A stretch of DNA of 29,297 nt from a virus, in IMG/VR virus record IMGVR_UViG_3300036828_000582, positions 1 to 29,297 of that record; one strand, given 5' to 3'. The position numbers and the translations under genes are program-made. Positions 8,763-28,501 of the stretch are shown piece after piece. Numbering within the stretch: the stretch's first letter is position 1; each line of letters starts with the position of its first letter. The notes under the pieces were generated by a model. It saw only the letters and a list, made by a program, of their open reading frames with translations, was not told where the DNA came from and did not search any database.

Positions 8763-9509
8763 CCCGGCTCGCCGGGACAACAGCGAGAGGGGGCCGCCGT
8801 TCGGGTCATGCCTGGGGCAGCAACCACCAACCCGGCTCGCCGGGACAACAGCGAGAGAGCAGCGCACCATTAGTAACAACCCAGCTCGCCGGGACAATAG
8901 CGAGAGAGTTGGCTGTTGCGCGAAACAGCAACCACAAACCCCGGCTCGCCGGGACAACAGCGAGAGCAATGCCGTTAACCCTGATAGCCCGGCTCGCCGG
9001 GACAACAGCGAGAGGCCTTGTCGCGTCCGACGCGCCCGGCTCGCCGGGACAACAGCGAGAGAACGATGCGCCGCGCCGCGCCGAAGCAAGCGATGGGTAG
9101 CGCGTGATGAAGTGCTTTGATACCCGGCTCGCCGGGACAACAGCGAGAGGTCCTCGCGCCAGACCATTCGACGTGGCGGCGCATTATCAAGGAAAAAAAG
9201 ACTAGCGTTTTCCTTTTTCAGAGATTATAATAATACAACCAAACCCGGCTCGCCGGGACAACAGCGAGAGCAGAGAATATAAGAGAGAGTTGGGTAACCC
9301 GGCTCGCCGGGACAACAGCGAGAGGGCATTGTGCCGCACTTTGATACCCGGCTCGCCGGGACAACAGCGAGAGGGCATTGTACCAAGTTGGGTAACCCGG
9401 CTCGCCGGGACAACAGCGAGAGTGCTGCGCGGAGCAAGTCGCAACAACCATGAGAAACAAATGTTTAGACAGCAACCAACAACCCGGCTCGCCGGGACAA
9501 CAGCGAGAG
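8763..9509 (+). repeat. Repeat array 1: twelve 27-bp hairpin repeats
   Basis: Copies start at 8763, 8831, 8880, 8940, 8988, 9035, 9123, 9244, 9298, 9347, 9396 and 9483, all on the + strand. Unit: CCCGGCTCGCCGGG, able to form a 5-bp stem with a CTCG loop, then ACAACAGCGAGAG. Spacers are 41, 22, 33, 21, 20, 61, 94 (holding a promoter), 27, 22, 22 and 60 bases. Lengths of 20-22 dominate and several others are near multiples, but the spacing is not uniform as in a classical CRISPR array. Some spacers share ends (GGCATTGT at 9325 and 9374; GTTGGGTAA before 9298 and 9396; CTTTGATA before 9123 and 9347), so they are not all independent. The last copy lies inside the TnpB-like reading frame. Confidence 0.9.
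9203..9231 (+). promoter_or_regulatory. Promoter firing into the repeat array and TnpB-like gene
   Basis: TAGCGT, a 17-base spacer (TTTCCTTTTTCAGAGAT) and a perfect TATAAT. Predicted transcription start is near 9238, about five bases before the repeat at 9244, so the transcript would open with a repeat and run through five repeats into the TnpB-like gene. The upstream A-tract (GGAAAAAAAGAC) resembles an UP element. GGAAAA and TTTTCC followed by T5 could also form a weak terminator for transcripts arriving from the first seven repeats. Confidence 0.7.
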
Positions 9510-10754
9510 GACAGCCCCGTCGGCAGCCGCAACATCACTGTCTTCCGCCGGTACATATTTCAAATCTATCCGAGCGAAGAGCAAAAGCGCCAGCTGCATA
9601 TCCAACGCCGCATGATGGCGCAGTTGTGGAACGCATTCCTGCAACGCCATGAGGACATCTGGCGGCGCACAAAGGGTCAACGCGGCGTCCTCCACAGCGA
9701 GGACAAGGCGAGCTATTCATTCTTTGACATGACCAACGAGGTTACCCAGCTACGGCACGAGTGTCCGGAGTGGGCTGCGCTCTCGGTCTGGTCGCCTCAC
9801 CGTATTGCCAAATCGATGGATGAGGCCTTTAGCGCTTTCTACCGCCGCGCGCGGGCTGGCGCTGGAGCGCGCGCAGGCTATCCGCGCTACCAACGCAGCG
9901 AGGACGGCCGACGCATACCCCACGTACACAATCCAATTGCGATCCAAGGCGTCAAAAAAAGTAGCAGCGGCAGTGGCTGCCGGTTGGAGCCGGTTTCCGA
10001 ACGCAAGCGAACGCAGAATTGGCGGTTAACGCTAAAGGGCGTAAGCGGATTAATCCACGCACGCGGACGGTTGCCGCTTGATAATGTTATTTGCAAAAAC
10101 GCAGACGTTCTTTGGCGCGACAACAAGTGGTGGTTCTCAATTTGCGTAGAGATGCCACCACGTAGAGAGCCCGGCACCGAGAAGCTAACAGTAGAGCTTG
10201 ACGGTCTGGATTGTCTCGCGCGCGTAGCGGGTGAGCCGGAAACACCAGAGGGCCTGTTACGTGCTCACGATTTGACTGAGATAATTGATGAGCTCAAGTC
10301 AGAGCGCGACCAACGCTGGCCGCGTCGCAGCCCACGCGATCCGGATTGGGTTGAGGCCAACCAGGAGATCAATAGCCTATCGGCGCGCAGCGCGCGGATC
10401 CGGCGCGACGCCCTCCACGTGTGGAGTACTAGGCTCGCCAGCCGCGCCAGGGATCTGACCATAATAACGCCAAGGGTCAGCGATCACGTTGTCTCTCCAC
10501 ATGGCGACGAAAAGCAATGGGGAGCGGCTACGGACACAGTATCAAAGATCAACCGTAATGTTTTATCTATGGCGCCTGCTGCTGCTGTTGCGATGTTGAC
10601 CTACAAGGCAGAGGAGGCAGGCATCCGGTGCGACATTGTTGAGGACGAAGCACCGGCTATCGCAATCGGCTCTGTATTAGTTGACGCAGGCCGTAAGTTG
10701 CGCAATACCGCGCGCAAGATACGCAAGGCCAACCCAGGCTCGCCTGGACAATAG
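9450..10754 (+). CDS. TnpB-like RNA-guided effector, probably nuclease-dead
   Basis: 434 residues. The TnpB/OrfB hallmarks are clear: FQIYPSEEQKRQL (37-49), MAQLWNAFLQR (56-66), HRIAKSMDEAFSAFYRR (117-133) followed by GYPRYQ (143-148), LPLDN and WFSICVEMPP (227-237). RuvC-I survives as VELDGLDCLA (D251). At RuvC-II, where TnpB reads I-V-x-E-D-L, this protein has IITPRV (338-343), so the catalytic Glu is gone. TYKAEEAGIRC (384-394) aligns with the conserved YKA..aG strand, but the CxxC zinc ribbon that should follow is absent; D412 might be a RuvC-III Asp. Such loss is typical of TldR-type repressors. Residues 11-20 are encoded by a repeat and the TAG stop lies within another, as TnpB guide-RNA scaffolds overlap the tnpB 3' end. 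ATG 9450 has a weak ribosome site; no later start precedes the conserved region. Confidence 0.8.
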   Translation: MRNKCLDSNQQPGSPGQQREDSPVGSRNITVFRRYIFQIYPSEEQKRQLHIQRRMMAQLWNAFLQRHEDIWRRTKGQRGVLHSEDKASYSFFDMTNEVTQLRHECPEWAALSVWSPHRIAKSMDEAFSAFYRRARAGAGARAGYPRYQRSEDGRRIPHVHNPIAIQGVKKSSSGSGCRLEPVSERKRTQNWRLTLKGVSGLIHARGRLPLDNVICKNADVLWRDNKWWFSICVEMPPRREPGTEKLTVELDGLDCLARVAGEPETPEGLLRAHDLTEIIDELKSERDQRWPRRSPRDPDWVEANQEINSLSARSARIRRDALHVWSTRLASRARDLTIITPRVSDHVVSPHGDEKQWGAATDTVSKINRNVLSMAPAAAVAMLTYKAEEAGIRCDIVEDEAPAIAIGSVLVDAGRKLRNTARKIRKANPGSPGQ

Positions 10755-11118: not shown

Positions 11119-11997
11119 CCCGGCTCGCCGGGATAACAGCGAGAGCAGAAGGATCAACCTTCCATCCGGCTCGCCGGGACAAAAGCGAAAGCGGCAGATG
11201 GCTAGCGAGGGACCATCAGCATAACTACCCGGCTCGCCGGGACAACAGCGAGAGCGGATGCCGTCCGGTGCGATGAAACTACCCGGCTCGCCGGGACAAC
11301 AGCGAGAGAGAACGGCTTCTCGTCACAACTACCCGGCTCGCCGGAATAACAGCGAGAGAAACGAGGGAGCTTGTGAACGCCCACGGGTCTTTCTCGGCAG
11401 TCGAGTGAGGAGTATGATGAAACTAACCCGGCTCGCCGGGACAACAGCGAGAGGTTCAAGGATTGGGCGCGACTACATGAAACTACCCGGCTCGCCGGGA
11501 CAAAAGCGAGAGAGATCTAGTTTCAGGGATTGGGACCTACTACCCGGCTCGCCGGGACAACAGCGAGAGGGACCACATCACCAGTGGATGTGAAAGAAGA
11601 CGGCACATGAAAGCACTATCTGATCAAGGCCCAATCAGCTATGAGGTTCACTGGCGCTTCACAGGCTGGAGTAGGGTAAGAGTGTCTCAGGTGCGGGCTC
11701 TAGATCAGCGCTGCGCAAAGGATCAGGTGTGGTTGCATCACGTCGAAGCGTCGCGACTAAGTGACCAAATAGAATTTTTGGAGATCAAGGAGATGATGGG
11801 TTAAATGAGTAACCCGGCTCGCCGGGATAACAGCGAGAGTAGTAGCCAGCGGTGCTCCGGTGGTTATGTGCGTGAGATGAAACTACCCGGCTCGCCGGGA
11901 CAAAAGCGAGAGTAGCTCAAGTGCGAGATCTAGATCAACTACCCGGCTCGCCGGGTCAAAAGCGAGAGTGACCTGAATACAAGGACAAAAGCGAGAT
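11119..11997 (+). repeat. Repeat array 2: eleven hairpin repeats plus remnants
   Basis: Copies start at 11119, 11165, 11228, 11282, 11332, 11427, 11486, 11543, 11813, 11886 and 11942. A half copy (GGACAAAAGCGAGAT) lies at 11983-11997 and a trace (ATGAAACAACCCG) near 12024-12036. Spacers within the two blocks are 19, 36, 27, 23, 68, 32, 30 and, after the 11607 ORF, 46 and 29 bases. Unlike array 1, most copies are preceded by ATGAAACTA or a variant (ACAACTA, CCTACTA, ATCAACTA). Linker variants include ACAAAAGCGAGAG and ATAACAGCGAGAG, and the outer stem bases start to decay (11165, 11332), so this array looks older or less constrained. The gap 11116-11606 holds nothing else that I can support. 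Confidence 0.9.
11607..11804 (+). CDS. Small ORF inside array 2
   Basis: 65 residues from ATG 11607, with AAAGAAGA ten bases upstream. Charged, with two Trp-rich strands (YEVHWRFTGWSRVRVS). No family is recognised. Bases 11686-11709 match the spacer after the repeat at 11886 in 20 of 24 positions, so part of this ORF is duplicated in the array. It could be a genuine small gene or a long spacer that happens to be open. Confidence 0.35.
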   Translation: MKALSDQGPISYEVHWRFTGWSRVRVSQVRALDQRCAKDQVWLHHVEASRLSDQIEFLEIKEMMG

Positions 11998-18699: not shown

Positions 18700-19063
18700 G
18701 CAAAGATTAGAGCTGAACGAGCTGGCTTATAACAACGCTGCACTATATGCGCTGCTCCAGGTGTTAGATCATGGCAAGATGCCCGAACATGAGTGGTGGC
18801 ACTTTGCCGTAGTTAAGCTGACCGATGCGCTCAACGCTATGATCAGGGCTGCGATCGAGGCGGAAAAGCGAGTGCAACCGCGGCCATTCATTCTCACATT
18901 GCCGCCCAAGCCTTCGCCTGCTTCGCCAGCCTCGGCTGAGCCTCGCTGTCGCTGGCGCGACGGCGTAGACTTGAGCAAGGATATCCCGATTTATCTGGAG
19001 CTGCTGGCCAAGTGCTTCGACATCAAAGGCCACTCTCGCTATTGTCCCGGCGAGGCCGAGTAA
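18689..19063 (+). CDS. Chimeric ORF: unknown protein, mazG fragment and a repeat
   Basis: 124 residues from ATG 18689, with GAGGAG eight bases upstream. Residues 1-80 are an unrecognised helical protein (LNELAYNNAALYALLQVL, then HEWWHFAVVKLTDAL) with a Pro/Ala-rich linker. Residues about 88-114 repeat the MazG protein at 19891-20367: WRDGVDLSK then IYLELLAKCF, with a seven-codon in-frame loss that deletes the metal-binding EELAD. The last residues (SRYCPGEAE) and the stop are read from an inverted hairpin repeat. The natural C-terminus has thus been replaced by a broken duplicate. The first part may still function. Confidence 0.6.
   Translation: MTPKQRLELNELAYNNAALYALLQVLDHGKMPEHEWWHFAVVKLTDALNAMIRAAIEAEKRVQPRPFILTLPPKPSPASPASAEPRCRWRDGVDLSKDIPIYLELLAKCFDIKGHSRYCPGEAE
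18951..19032 (+). pseudogene. mazG fragment duplicated next to a repeat
   Basis: Bases 18951-19032 match mazG 20021-20123 closely (GCTGGCGYGAYGGCGTAGAC and GGCCAAGTGCTT shared) with one internal deletion of about 21 bases. Homology runs to GGCCA and stops exactly where the inverted repeat CTCTCGCT begins. It cannot encode a functional MazG. Confidence 0.85.
19033..19059 (-). repeat. Hairpin repeat abutting the mazG fragment
   Basis: Minus-strand copy, CTCGGCCTCGCCGGG then ACAATAGCGAGAG with one extra C in the loop side. In minus orientation the bases that follow it (TGGCCTTTGATGTCGAAGCA) are antisense to the mazG fragment and match antisense mazG in about 20 of 25 positions. A further 5'-half trace (CAACCCGGCT) lies at 19078-19087 on the + strand. 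Confidence 0.85.
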
Positions 19064-19894: not shown

Positions 19895-20367
19895 ACATAT
19901 TTGAGCTACACGAGAAGATGACCGCTCATCTGTTTCCCGCCTATAGCAGTACTGATGAGCGCTTTCTCGCGCTCGCGCTGTGCGGGGAGGCGGGCGAGCT
20001 GGCCAACATGATCAAGAAGCGCTGGCGTGATGGCGTAGACTTGAGCAAAGAGATCCGTGAAGAGCTTGCCGATATCCAGATCTATCTGGAGCTACTGGCC
20101 AAGTGCTTTGGTATTGAAGGCCAGAAGCTAGATGAAGCGGTGCAGCAAAAGCTAGCCAAGGTCGCTATAATGAAAGCAGCTATAAAGCCTGTGTCCAAAA
20201 GCCCTATTGAATATTCCGGTATGAGCTACGAACAAGCTAGCCGTGAAGCTGAGAGGTTAATTGCGAAAGGCTGGTACCAGAATTTTGACCGCTTAATGGC
20301 ATTGTATCAGATAATGGCAGATGGCGACCCAAGGGCGGGACGTATCCAATATAGGAAAGGCAAGTGA
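19891..20367 (+). CDS. mazG: MazG-like nucleotide pyrophosphohydrolase
   Basis: 158 residues. Helical MazG fold with GEAGEL (32-37; E33, E36) and EELADIQIYLELLA (57-70; E57/E58, D61) forming the EExxE-type metal site. These enzymes hydrolyse (d)NTPs to monophosphates and PPi; in phages they can also lower ppGpp or remove non-canonical nucleotides. The C-terminal 60 residues (from about 100) form an extra region with SYEQASREAERLI, possibly a separate helical domain. Starts within the dnaQ stop (ATGA) and ends within the GT2 start. A defective duplicate of bases 20021-20123 lies 1 kb upstream. Confidence 0.85.
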   Translation: MNIFELHEKMTAHLFPAYSSTDERFLALALCGEAGELANMIKKRWRDGVDLSKEIREELADIQIYLELLAKCFGIEGQKLDEAVQQKLAKVAIMKAAIKPVSKSPIEYSGMSYEQASREAERLIAKGWYQNFDRLMALYQIMADGDPRAGRIQYRKGK

Positions 20368-23845: not shown

Positions 23846-24460
23846 CCGTTGACCTCTATCAAGGGCATAGGCCCAGCCTTTGTCCAAGAGATCATGAAAA
23901 CACGCGCCAACGGCTGCGAGCTAAGGCCTGTGCTCCGGAAGAAGCTGGAGGAGGGCAAGACTGAGATTGATTCAATCTATCCAATCCGCGACGCAATCAA
24001 CCGGCTGCATCCTTCGCTCCCAGAAATAAATATCGTATCAACGCCAGTGCCTTGTTGCGACGTGCAAAGCGGCATTGACAAGGAGATATTGGTTCTGGGG
24101 CTGGCGGAGCGGCTTGATCAATTTGATATGAATGAGCCTATTCGCATTATGCGCCGCGGCGGGCGGATCTGCGGTCCGCCTACCGCCGCACTCAATATCT
24201 TCTTGCGCGACGATAGCGACCGGCTATTGTGCCGGATCGATCGCTACCGCTTCCCGGACATAGGCCAGAAGATCATGGAGCACGGCCGTCCGGGTAAAGC
24301 GCTGTACGCGCTCAAGGGCTATGTGCTCGCCAACTTTAGAATGCTGATGGTACAGCGGGTCAAATTCCTGGGTGACATAGATCACCCAATCGCGCTGGAG
24401 CGCGGCGGAACAACTATTAAGCTGCACGCAGGCGAGCAGGTTAATGTACTACCGCCTTGA
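23846..24460 (+). CDS. dnaE: DnaE C-terminal part after the in-frame TGA
   Basis: Same reading frame as the upstream DnaE part; reads Pro-Leu-Thr-Ser-Ile-Lys-Gly-Ile-Gly-Pro directly after the TGA. SIKGIGPAFVQEIMKTR is the helix-hairpin-helix that follows 'GL..IkGvG' in DnaE. The remaining 180 residues cover the OB-fold region (LVLGLAERLDQFD; RYRFPDIGQKI). TTG 23849 could start it, but no ribosome site precedes it. It may be joined by UGA readthrough (UGA followed by C is a leaky context), made separately as a split subunit, or lost through a nonsense mutation or sequencing error. Combined length from 21554 is about 969 codons, near the expected size without extra C-terminal domains. Confidence 0.75.
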   Translation, partial: PLTSIKGIGPAFVQEIMKTRANGCELRPVLRKKLEEGKTEIDSIYPIRDAINRLHPSLPEINIVSTPVPCCDVQSGIDKEILVLGLAERLDQFDMNEPIRIMRRGGRICGPPTAALNIFLRDDSDRLLCRIDRYRFPDIGQKIMEHGRPGKALYALKGYVLANFRMLMVQRVKFLGDIDHPIALERGGTTIKLHAGEQVNVLPP

Positions 24461-24476
24461 GGAAAGAGTTATTGAA

Positions 24477-24665
24477 ATGAAATTGGAGAATGAAACCTAT
24501 CTGGGTGATGGTCTATATGCTTCCTTTGATGGTTTTATGATTGCGCTAAGGGCACCACGTGATGACGGCGACCATTGGGTCGGTATTGAACCTTTGGTGC
24601 TCTCGGAGCTATTAGATTTTGCCAAAAAAGTTGGCATGCTGACCTTCACATCCAAGATAAAATGA
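24477..24665 (+). CDS. Small conserved hypothetical protein
   Basis: 62 residues from ATG 24477, with GAGGAAAGAG upstream. ETYLGDGLYASFDGFMIALRAPR, followed by DHWVGIEPLVLSELLDFAKK, matches a short protein that I recall as widespread in phages and bacteria ('yLGDGvya.fdg..i.L...r......i.Lep.v...L..f'). The function is unknown. It overlaps the next start by four bases (ATGA). Confidence 0.7.
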   Translation: MKLENETYLGDGLYASFDGFMIALRAPRDDGDHWVGIEPLVLSELLDFAKKVGMLTFTSKIK

Positions 24666-24844
24666 CAAAGCAATTTGTGTTAGTGTTGATAGTTTGCGGA
24701 GCGTTTGATTGCCATCCCGAACCGTCTGCGCTCCGGTATCCGACTATGATCGCGTGTCTCGAAGCAGGCTTTACACTAATGGAGCAACAGCCTGAGCTAG
24801 CCAAAGGCTGGCATTGCACGAGAGGATTTGAGAACGCACGTTAA
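24662..24844 (+). CDS. Small protein with hydrophobic N-terminus
   Basis: 60 residues. Lys plus a short hydrophobic run (QFVLVLIVCGAF) resembles a weak signal or membrane-anchor sequence. Three Cys residues (CGAFDCH, and CLEAG) and a final HCTRGF suggest an exported disulfide-containing peptide. The pattern 'yps..aCl.a......' is common in short periplasmic phage proteins. The start overlaps the preceding stop. Downstream is a duplicated copy of the next gene's start and a minus-strand repeat unit. Confidence 0.5.
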   Translation: MTKQFVLVLIVCGAFDCHPEPSALRYPTMIACLEAGFTLMEQQPELAKGWHCTRGFENAR

Positions 24845-24862
24845 GATGGATGGTGGATTAAG

Positions 24863-24889
24863 CTCTCGCTGTTGTCCCGGCGAGCCGGG
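24863..24889 (-). repeat. Stand-alone hairpin repeat on the minus strand
   Basis: Exact consensus on the minus strand: CCCGGCTCGCCGGG then ACAACAGCGAGAG. A promoter (24896-24924) would start its transcript within two bases of the repeat. The 17 bases that follow (minus strand CTTAATCCACCATCCAT) match antisense to the first codons of the nuclease gene at 24964 (CTTAAACCACCGTCCAT) in 15 positions. It is the cleanest single repeat-guide unit of the window. Confidence 0.95.
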
Positions 24890-24895
24890 TTAAAG

Positions 24896-24924
24896 AATAT
24901 ACTCCCTAGAAAAAGGAAAAGCTA
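24896..24924 (-). promoter_or_regulatory. Leftward promoter for the single repeat unit
   Basis: Minus strand: TAGCTT, 17-base spacer (TTCCTTTTTCTAGGGAG), TATATT, then CTTTAA and the repeat. Boxes, spacing and the pyrimidine-rich spacer match the family at 9203, 25384, 26301, 26693 and 28564. It lies between converging repeats: a full copy on the minus strand and a remnant at 24942 on the plus strand. Confidence 0.7.
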
Positions 24925-24941
24925 GTCGGATTTTGAAATTA

Positions 24942-24960
24942 CCAGGCTCGCCGGGCACAA
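24942..24960 (+). repeat. Truncated hairpin repeat before the nuclease gene
   Basis: CCAGGCTCGCCGGG followed by CACAA; the GCGAGAG end is missing and the stem has one mismatch (A opposite G). It lies in the short leader of the gene at 24964 and would put a hairpin next to its start codon. Confidence 0.6.
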
Positions 24961-24963
24961 AAT

Positions 24964-25386
24964 ATGGACGGTGGTTTAAGGCAACTCTTCAAGAAGCACC
25001 TGCCAGAGGTTCACTGGCAAGCGATAGAGACCTTTATTACAGGCTCTGGAGTGCCGGATATCAACGGCTGTCTCGATGGTATTGAATTTTGGATTGAGAA
25101 TAAGTTTGCGAAGGGCAAGAAGCGCGCTCGCGTAACCTTTAGCCCAGCCCAAGTCGGGTGGATCGAGCAAAGGGTACGGCATGGCGGCAGGGTATTCATC
25201 GCGGTTCGCCACACCACAGCGCAAGCGGATATGCTGTATCTTCTACGCGGCGCAGTTGTGCGCGAGCTGACAGTTGGCGAAGAGACCACAGGGGCTCTAG
25301 CGATTGGGGCCTGGGACGGCGGACCGGCGCGCTGGGATTGGGACACTGTTAAATGGCTGTTATGCAAGCAAAGTAAAAAAGACTAG
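24964..25386 (+). CDS. VRR-NUC-type PD-(D/E)XK nuclease
   Basis: 140 residues. GSGVPDINGCLDGIEFWIENK (27-47) gives the PD (31-32) and ExK (E45, K47) active site, and VTFSPAQVGWIEQRVRHGGRVFIAVR (58-83) is the Q-x-x-W plus GG-R-V-F core of the VRR-NUC/Holliday-resolvase-like family. In phages these act on branched or flapped DNA in replication or recombination. The first codons (ATGGACGGTGGTTTAAG) are duplicated at 24846-24862, next to the minus-strand repeat. The leader holds a truncated repeat instead of a good ribosome site. Its stop codon overlaps the next promoter. Confidence 0.8.
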   Translation: MDGGLRQLFKKHLPEVHWQAIETFITGSGVPDINGCLDGIEFWIENKFAKGKKRARVTFSPAQVGWIEQRVRHGGRVFIAVRHTTAQADMLYLLRGAVVRELTVGEETTGALAIGAWDGGPARWDWDTVKWLLCKQSKKD

Positions 25387-27373: not shown

Positions 27374-27568
27374 ATGAAAATGTCAAAAATGCAGCTGTAC
27401 GCAGAGAACATCGGTACACAGATATTTTTACGCGCCTCTCCCGGCGTTTTAGTGTTGCCGATTGCGCTGTCAGTCGATGAAGCGCGCCAGCTAAGTCAGC
27501 AGCTCTTAACCGCGGTAGCTGCCAATCTTGCGGCGACCGGGTTCGCGAGCCGGAAGGCCACCACCTAA
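27374..27568 (+). CDS. Small hypothetical protein with a duplicated tail
   Basis: 64 residues from ATG 27374, behind AAGGAGAA. LYAENIGTQIFLRASPGVLVLPIALSVDEARQL is beta-alpha. The last 12 residues (AATGFASRKATT) are encoded by a segment (27531 onward) that also occurs in the gene at 28331 in another frame, so the C-terminus appears to be borrowed. No family is recognised. Confidence 0.55.
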   Translation: MKMSKMQLYAENIGTQIFLRASPGVLVLPIALSVDEARQLSQQLLTAVAANLAATGFASRKATT

Positions 27569-28330: not shown

Positions 28331-28501
28331 ATGACCCGCGGGCTCCAACTCCAATTTTCTTGCGGCGACCGGGTTCGCGAGCCGGAAGGCCACCACCTAG
28401 GTACCGTCATAGCCCAATGGGGCTGGACGGTCCGCGTTGCCTGGGACGGCTCCAACTGGAAGCAGGATCTGGAGCCGGATCAGCTGGAACTTGTTGATTA
28501 A
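28331..28501 (+). CDS. Very small protein with SH3-like (KOW-type) sequence
   Basis: 56 residues from ATG 28331. DRVREPEGHHLGTVIAQWGWTVRVAWDGSNW, followed by LEPDQLELVD, is the classic pattern of a small beta-barrel ('G..V....g..GtV....g...v.Wd......l.p..L'), also seen in short phage proteins. It lies in a stretch with no longer ORF. Its codons 11-29 are the source or copy of the 56-bp duplication at 27531. No strong ribosome site is seen. Confidence 0.65.
   Translation: MTRGLQLQFSCGDRVREPEGHHLGTVIAQWGWTVRVAWDGSNWKQDLEPDQLELVD
28362..28416 (+). repeat. Duplicated ~56-bp segment, copy 2
   Basis: The in-frame copy inside the 28331 gene, encoding CGDRVREPEGHHLGTVIAQ. Because it forms an integral part of the barrel pattern, this copy is more likely the original and the 27531 copy the derived one. 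Confidence 0.8.

What the first reader, a model, noticed from the sequence alone, without database searches (positions are those of the whole stretch)
24846..24980. Promoter-driven single repeat whose 'guide' matches the start of the nuclease gene
On the minus strand a promoter (24924-24896) starts at a consensus repeat (24889-24863), and the next 17 bases, CTTAATCCACCATCCAT, are a 15/17 match to the antisense of the first codons of the VRR-NUC gene (24964-24980). The homology ends precisely at the repeat boundary. This is what a repeat-guide RNA aimed at a neighbouring gene start would look like. Alternative: the repeat/promoter block inserted into the gene start with a 17-bp target duplication.
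Basis: partly seen in the sequence, partly recalled or inferred. Interest (0 to 1): 0.82.

Follow-up and report, generated by a model that had tools for sequence, protein, structure and literature searches.

The report
Solitary phage CRISPR-type repeat beside duplicated gene start
A phage that carries a cleavage-dead, CRISPR-like RNA-guided protein has a single CRISPR-type repeat with its own promoter, and the short sequence after that repeat copies the start of the next gene; comparison with related phages suggests the copy is a by-product of how these repeats move and duplicate DNA rather than a guide kept to control that gene.

Summary
On the minus strand a perfect copy of the phage's 27-nt repeat (24889-24863) follows a promoter-like module whose -10 box ends 6 nt before it. 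The next 17 nt match the start of the gene at 24964 at 15 of 17 positions. The repeats are CRISPR-type: stem and loop-tail pseudoknot covary, and distant relatives carry regular arrays beside the same TnpB/Cas12f-like protein, whose RuvC catalytic positions are not conserved. So a minimal crRNA gene is plausible.

The claim that its guide is aimed at the neighbouring gene is not supported. In the close relative (contig 838) a solitary repeat sits at the same place, but its 3' flank does not match the gene. Four other solitary repeats upstream of genes give no comparable match. Self-matches are as common beside the 5' flank as the 3' flank (11/125 against 12/121). Two clean filled/empty site pairs show repeats entering with decaying 16-25-nt direct duplications, one with this exact architecture. 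I therefore favour an insertion or recombination duplication, with the RNA possibly still made. No RNA or binding data exist here. The wider system (cleavage-dead TnpB-like protein, CRISPR arrays and scattered repeats in phages) is more interesting than the 17-bp match.

The parts
24863..24889 (-). solitary CRISPR-type repeat (crRNA handle): 5-bp stem, CTCG loop, tail CGAG that can pair with the loop
   Evidence: exact copy of the 27-nt family; stem and pseudoknot covariation in 34 variants
24896..24927 (-). promoter-like module GACTAGCTTTTCCTTTTTCTAGGGAGTATATT; -10 TATATT at 24901-24896; predicted start at about the first base of the repeat
   Evidence: recurs at 9200, 25381, 26690 and 28561 (+) and in relative L011; generic scan negative
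24846..24862 (-). 3' flank of the repeat ('guide'), CTTAATCCACCATCCAT
   Evidence: 15/17 match to 24980-24964
24964..24980 (+). matched segment: first codons of the downstream gene
   Evidence: sequence; conserved in L011
   Evidence: phrog_2165 1.3e-20, phrog_93 0.003, phrog_5702 0.032; no VRR-NUC hit in Pfam
24942..24960 (+). degenerate, truncated repeat (CCAGGCTCGCCGGGCACAA), second end of the 101-bp block
   Evidence: direct repeat family D7 copy at 24934-24955
9450..10754 (+). TnpB / Cas12f-like protein with RuvC catalytic positions not conserved (start codon uncertain; ORF begins inside the array)
8763..9509 (+). repeat array 1 (irregular, 47-121 nt spacing)
11119..11968 (+). repeat array 2 (units often begin GATGAAACTA)
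24444..24844 (+). two small ORFs between the polymerase gene and the block; absent in relative L011
   Evidence: no relative of the second ORF found

Best explanation
The locus is a solitary repeat of a phage-encoded CRISPR-type system whose single effector is a TnpB/Cas12f-like protein predicted to have lost nuclease activity. A phage promoter very likely starts transcription at about the first base of the repeat and makes a minimal crRNA (27-nt handle plus downstream sequence); inferred. The handle folds into a hairpin plus loop-tail pseudoknot; shown by covariation. It is probably bound by the effector; inferred. The 15/17 match to the start of the next gene is a short direct duplication made when the repeat-promoter block arrived, or by illegitimate recombination at the repeat; it was not kept as a guide. 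This is inferred from parallel events elsewhere. The RNA may bind the duplicated site weakly, but no evidence says that this is what it is for.
For: Two repeats in contig 838 (L009) lie at sites empty in the window. L009 8356(-) is flanked by a 25-nt direct duplication; L009 7485(-) by a 16-21-nt duplication whose second copy starts exactly at the repeat's 3' border, the architecture seen at 24889/24846; copies have decayed. More local copies abut repeats: L009 7816 (23/24 to a site about 90 nt away), L005 9341 and 8265, L008 7315-7447, and in the window 19033 with a 53-nt copy of 20071-20123. Self-matches are equally common on 3' and 5' flanks: 12/121 against 11/125 (Fisher p = 0.83), random 75/1500. 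Relative L011 has a solitary repeat at the same site with an unrelated 3' flank. RNA nature: 97.7% of cells paired, 23 double changes, none of 500 shuffles as high, including pseudoknot changes CUCG/CGAG to CCCG/CGGG and CUGG/CCAG. CRISPR nature: regular arrays of about 72-77 nt in L022 and most of L023, and about 74 nt in L014, beside the same protein.
Against: No relative shows the empty site for this exact insertion: L011 already has a solitary repeat here, with a different upstream sequence. The duplicated length is variable and I know of no integrase here that would leave 16-25-nt duplications. The homology starts at guide position 1 and its length (17) fits the short spacers of the arrays (about 17-22 nt after the GATGAAACTA part), as a real guide would. 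Self-matches beside repeats are about twice as common as at random positions (3' side p = 0.03).
Confidence: 0.6

Rival explanations
1. Guide RNA for local repression: the solitary crRNA leads the cleavage-dead effector to the start of the 24964 gene and blocks its transcription, as CreA/CreR-type RNAs, scaRNA or TldR guides do.
For: Own promoter-like module; crRNA-type handle; apparently cleavage-dead effector in the same genome; 15/17 match placed at the gene start, about 90 nt behind the repeat; length fits array spacers.
Against: Match absent in the close relative with a solitary repeat at the same place; four other solitary repeats upstream of genes have no strong match; mismatch at guide position 6, inside a typical seed; no excess of matches on the 3' side over the 5' side.
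Confidence: 0.2
2. RNA decoy: the solitary repeat RNA occupies an effector (its own, or that of a competing phage or the host) like the RNA anti-CRISPRs (Racrs); the sequence after the repeat does not matter.
For: Solitary repeats of this family also occur in contigs where no effector was seen (L004, L006, L007, L010, L012, L015); Racrs are solitary promoter-driven repeats in viral genomes (PMC10651486). Explains why the handle is conserved but the 3' flank is not.
Against: The window phage encodes the matching effector itself; the contigs without an effector were read only in part and may be fragments; no host system with this repeat was found, though the host was not identified.
Confidence: 0.12
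3. Recombination junction: the upstream copy is the start of a second, divergent allele of the gene, left where two phage genomes were joined, so no insertion event duplicated it.
For: Both mismatches are synonymous; the 400-nt region with two small ORFs upstream is absent in L011.
Against: No phage with the second allele next to these ORFs was found.
Confidence: 0.08

Closest known systems
Racr solitary repeat units in phages (PMC10651486)
   Same: single CRISPR-type repeat in a viral genome directly behind a predicted promoter
   Different: Racrs are not tied to cas genes and act on host systems; here the phage encodes the matching effector
CreA / CreR crRNA-like regulators (PMC9458426, PMC12737573)
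   Same: ectopic repeat outside an array, partial match of its spacer to a nearby gene region, effector in the same genome
   Different: those work with complete CRISPR effectors of the host; here the effector is a single dead TnpB-like phage protein and the match is not kept in the relative
TldR, phage-encoded nuclease-dead TnpB repressors (PMC13418256)
   Same: nuclease-dead TnpB-like protein in phages that could repress by binding
   Different: as far as I know TldR uses one guide next to its gene; here there are CRISPR arrays and scattered repeats
Cas12m / subtype V-M (PMC11013384, PMC11656645)
   Same: cleavage-dead type V effector with CRISPR arrays on mobile elements
   Different: structural match (8hhl_A, 2.3e-9) but about 600 aa against about 400; no family-level sequence hit
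Phage TnpB-CRISPR loci: cyanophage CL131 V-U2 (PMC6293099), Thermus Lalka phages (PMC11437467)
   Same: TnpB-like gene beside a CRISPR array, no cas1/cas2 reported beside it
   Different: different repeats in the Lalka phages; solitary repeats scattered through genes are not described in the passages read

Membership tests
type V CRISPR-type system (TnpB/Cas12-like effector plus array) | single TnpB/Cas12-like effector | tested here: met
   guided_TnpB E 4.8e-23 but 82 bits, below its cutoff of 100; Cas12f models to 1.7e-20 in relatives; fold match to Cas12f and TnpB (model pLDDT 66.5)
type V CRISPR-type system (TnpB/Cas12-like effector plus array) | adjacent array of regular repeats with unique spacers | tested here: met
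   met in relatives L022, L023 and L014; irregular in the window
type V CRISPR-type system (TnpB/Cas12-like effector plus array) | spacers match foreign DNA beside a PAM | tested here: inconclusive
   no phage match for the spacers of L022, L023 and L014; two L022 spacers resemble its own genes weakly
nuclease-dead TnpB (TldR-like / Cas12m-like) | RuvC catalytic D-E-D lost | tested here: met
   against three phage TnpBs: first position E/E/D/D/A/T, Glu position I/I/H/R/I/V, third Asp and zinc ribbon absent; an invariant Asp two residues after the first position leaves some doubt there
CreA / CreR-type regulatory crRNA | solitary repeat with its own promoter | tested here: inconclusive
   recurring phage module, generic scan negative, no RNA data
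CreA / CreR-type regulatory crRNA | guide matches the regulated gene region and the pairing is kept in relatives | tested here: not met
   match present in the window only; the L011 guide does not match
CreA / CreR-type regulatory crRNA | represses the target | not testable with these tools
   needs expression data
Racr | repeat unit not associated with cas genes | tested here: not met
   effector at 9450-10754 in the same genome
insertion with target duplication | direct duplication flanking the inserted block | tested here: met
   15/17 direct copies at 24846 and 24964
insertion with target duplication | empty site in a relative | tested here: inconclusive
   met for two other insertions, not available for this one

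The most novel reading that the evidence does not exclude
A mobile crRNA repeat that makes its own guide: on insertion it duplicates about 17-25 nt of target, so the sequence behind the repeat automatically matches the neighbouring gene (and the empty site in sister phages), and the cleavage-dead effector then represses that gene.
Probability: 0.1. Interest if true: 0.88.

Novelty: new variant of a known kind. Interest (0 to 1): 0.5.

Why it matters
The 17-bp match alone is probably a relic. The setting is worth attention: phages with a compact, apparently cleavage-dead TnpB/Cas12-like protein, CRISPR arrays without cas1/cas2 (none was noticed; no dedicated search was made), and repeats that also sit inside genes. 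It would bear on how dead TnpB proteins and CRISPR arrays come together, and on how phages gain guides without the usual adaptation genes.

Tried and rejected
Chance match: rejected. Enrichment of neighbour matches on the guide side: not found. Guide-to-neighbour matches at four other solitary repeats upstream of genes: none strong (L008 12/17 belongs to a longer degenerate gene copy). Known RNA family: none in Rfam. Close relatives of the effector in bacterial genomes, or of the 24964 region or the effector in named phages: none; a distant relative of the effector (24% identity) is in Thermus phage phiLo. Array targets in named phages: none. More relatives of the gene start, the small ORF and the solitary-repeat module: nothing new. 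PAM inference: five target sites gave no consensus by eye. Effector-proximal repeats were looked at but not tested for autoregulation.

Full report
The window is a 29,297-nt virus record with phage genes: C-family DNA polymerase, primase-polymerase, thymidylate synthase, ParB-like, HNH endonuclease and Pam3-like proteins. It holds about 31 copies of a 27-nt repeat, most in two irregular arrays around a TnpB-like gene and some scattered.

What was claimed is present. The minus-strand repeat at 24889-24863 is exact; the next 17 nt match the antisense of 24964-24980 at 15 positions; the only other place with up to 3 mismatches is that one. The -10 box TATATT ends 6 nt before the repeat. The promoter claim rests on a module that recurs at four other places in the window and four times in the relative L011; one of each also precedes repeats. 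A generic scan found nothing.

The repeat is an RNA element. In 34 variants the stem and the loop-tail pairing are kept with changes on both sides far beyond shuffles and slid controls. In distant relatives L022 and L023 (47 and 45% identical effector) and in L014 it forms mostly regular arrays next to the effector. It is therefore a CRISPR-type direct repeat. The effector resembles TnpB, Cas12f and Cas12m in sequence and fold, though the model is of moderate confidence. Aligned with three phage TnpBs, the catalytic positions are not conserved and the zinc ribbon is missing, so it should bind without cutting; this is inference.

Does the guide aim at the gene? If so, the pairing should last. 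In the close relative (contig 838; pieces L009, L011) a solitary minus-strand repeat stands at the same place in front of the same gene, but its 3' flank runs into the end of the polymerase gene and does not resemble the gene start. I tested five solitary repeats placed upstream of a divergent gene against the 260 nt upstream of each repeat: only the window case stands out; L008 reaches 12/17 because of a longer degenerate copy of the gene. Over all repeats in 14 contig sets, flanking 20-mers match elsewhere in the contig about equally on both sides (12/121 and 11/125; p = 0.83), against 75/1500 at random positions. A guide function would predict an excess on the 3' side only.

Where does the copy come from? 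Compared with the window, contig 838 has two further repeats at sites that are empty in the window. One is flanked by a 25-nt direct duplication and carries 31 nt that match another place in the same contig at 30 of 31 positions; the other is flanked by a 16-21-nt duplication whose second copy begins exactly at the repeat's 3' border. Several other repeats abut local copies. The window case fits this series. I cannot say which enzyme or process does it, and the empty site for this very insertion was not found.

My reading: a minimal, probably transcribed crRNA gene whose 3' flank is a by-product of duplication. A guide role, a decoy role like Racrs (PMC10651486) and a recombination junction remain possible and are listed with confidences. 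Literature compared: TldR (PMC13418256), CreA/CreR (PMC9458426, PMC12737573), Cas12m (PMC11013384, PMC11656645), phage TnpB-CRISPR loci (PMC6293099, PMC11437467). Of these only PMC10651486, PMC6293099, PMC11656645 and PMC11437467 were opened (passages); the others were seen as titles and abstracts.

Noticed in passing
window 18980-19059: A minus-strand repeat ends a gene fragment that copies 53 nt (85%) of the MazG-like gene at 20071-20123; the homology stops exactly at the repeat.
   Followed up: partly
L009 7390-7485; L003 2866-2892: Repeats sit inside open genes without breaking the frame (Pam3 gp34-like gene; the effector gene itself in L003).
   Followed up: partly
L022 11613-12253; L023 11526-12601; L014 12654-12974: Mostly regular CRISPR arrays beside a TnpB-like protein in viral contigs, related to the window system; possibly an undescribed type V-like group.
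   Followed up: partly
L023 9840-9866, 12609-12635; L014 10840: Repeat variants with compensatory changes in loop and tail (CCCG/CGGG, CTGG/CCAG), good evidence for the pseudoknot.
   Followed up: yes
L011 4721(+), L008 7447(-), L006 2283(+): A second kind of solitary-repeat module: shared upstream TTTACTTTGTTTGTAGTTTCAAGATA...TTCA and a repeat with a short linker, divergent from a gene.
   Followed up: partly
window 27526-27567 and 28358-28399: Perfect 42-nt direct repeat 832 nt apart, unrelated to the repeat family.
   Followed up: no
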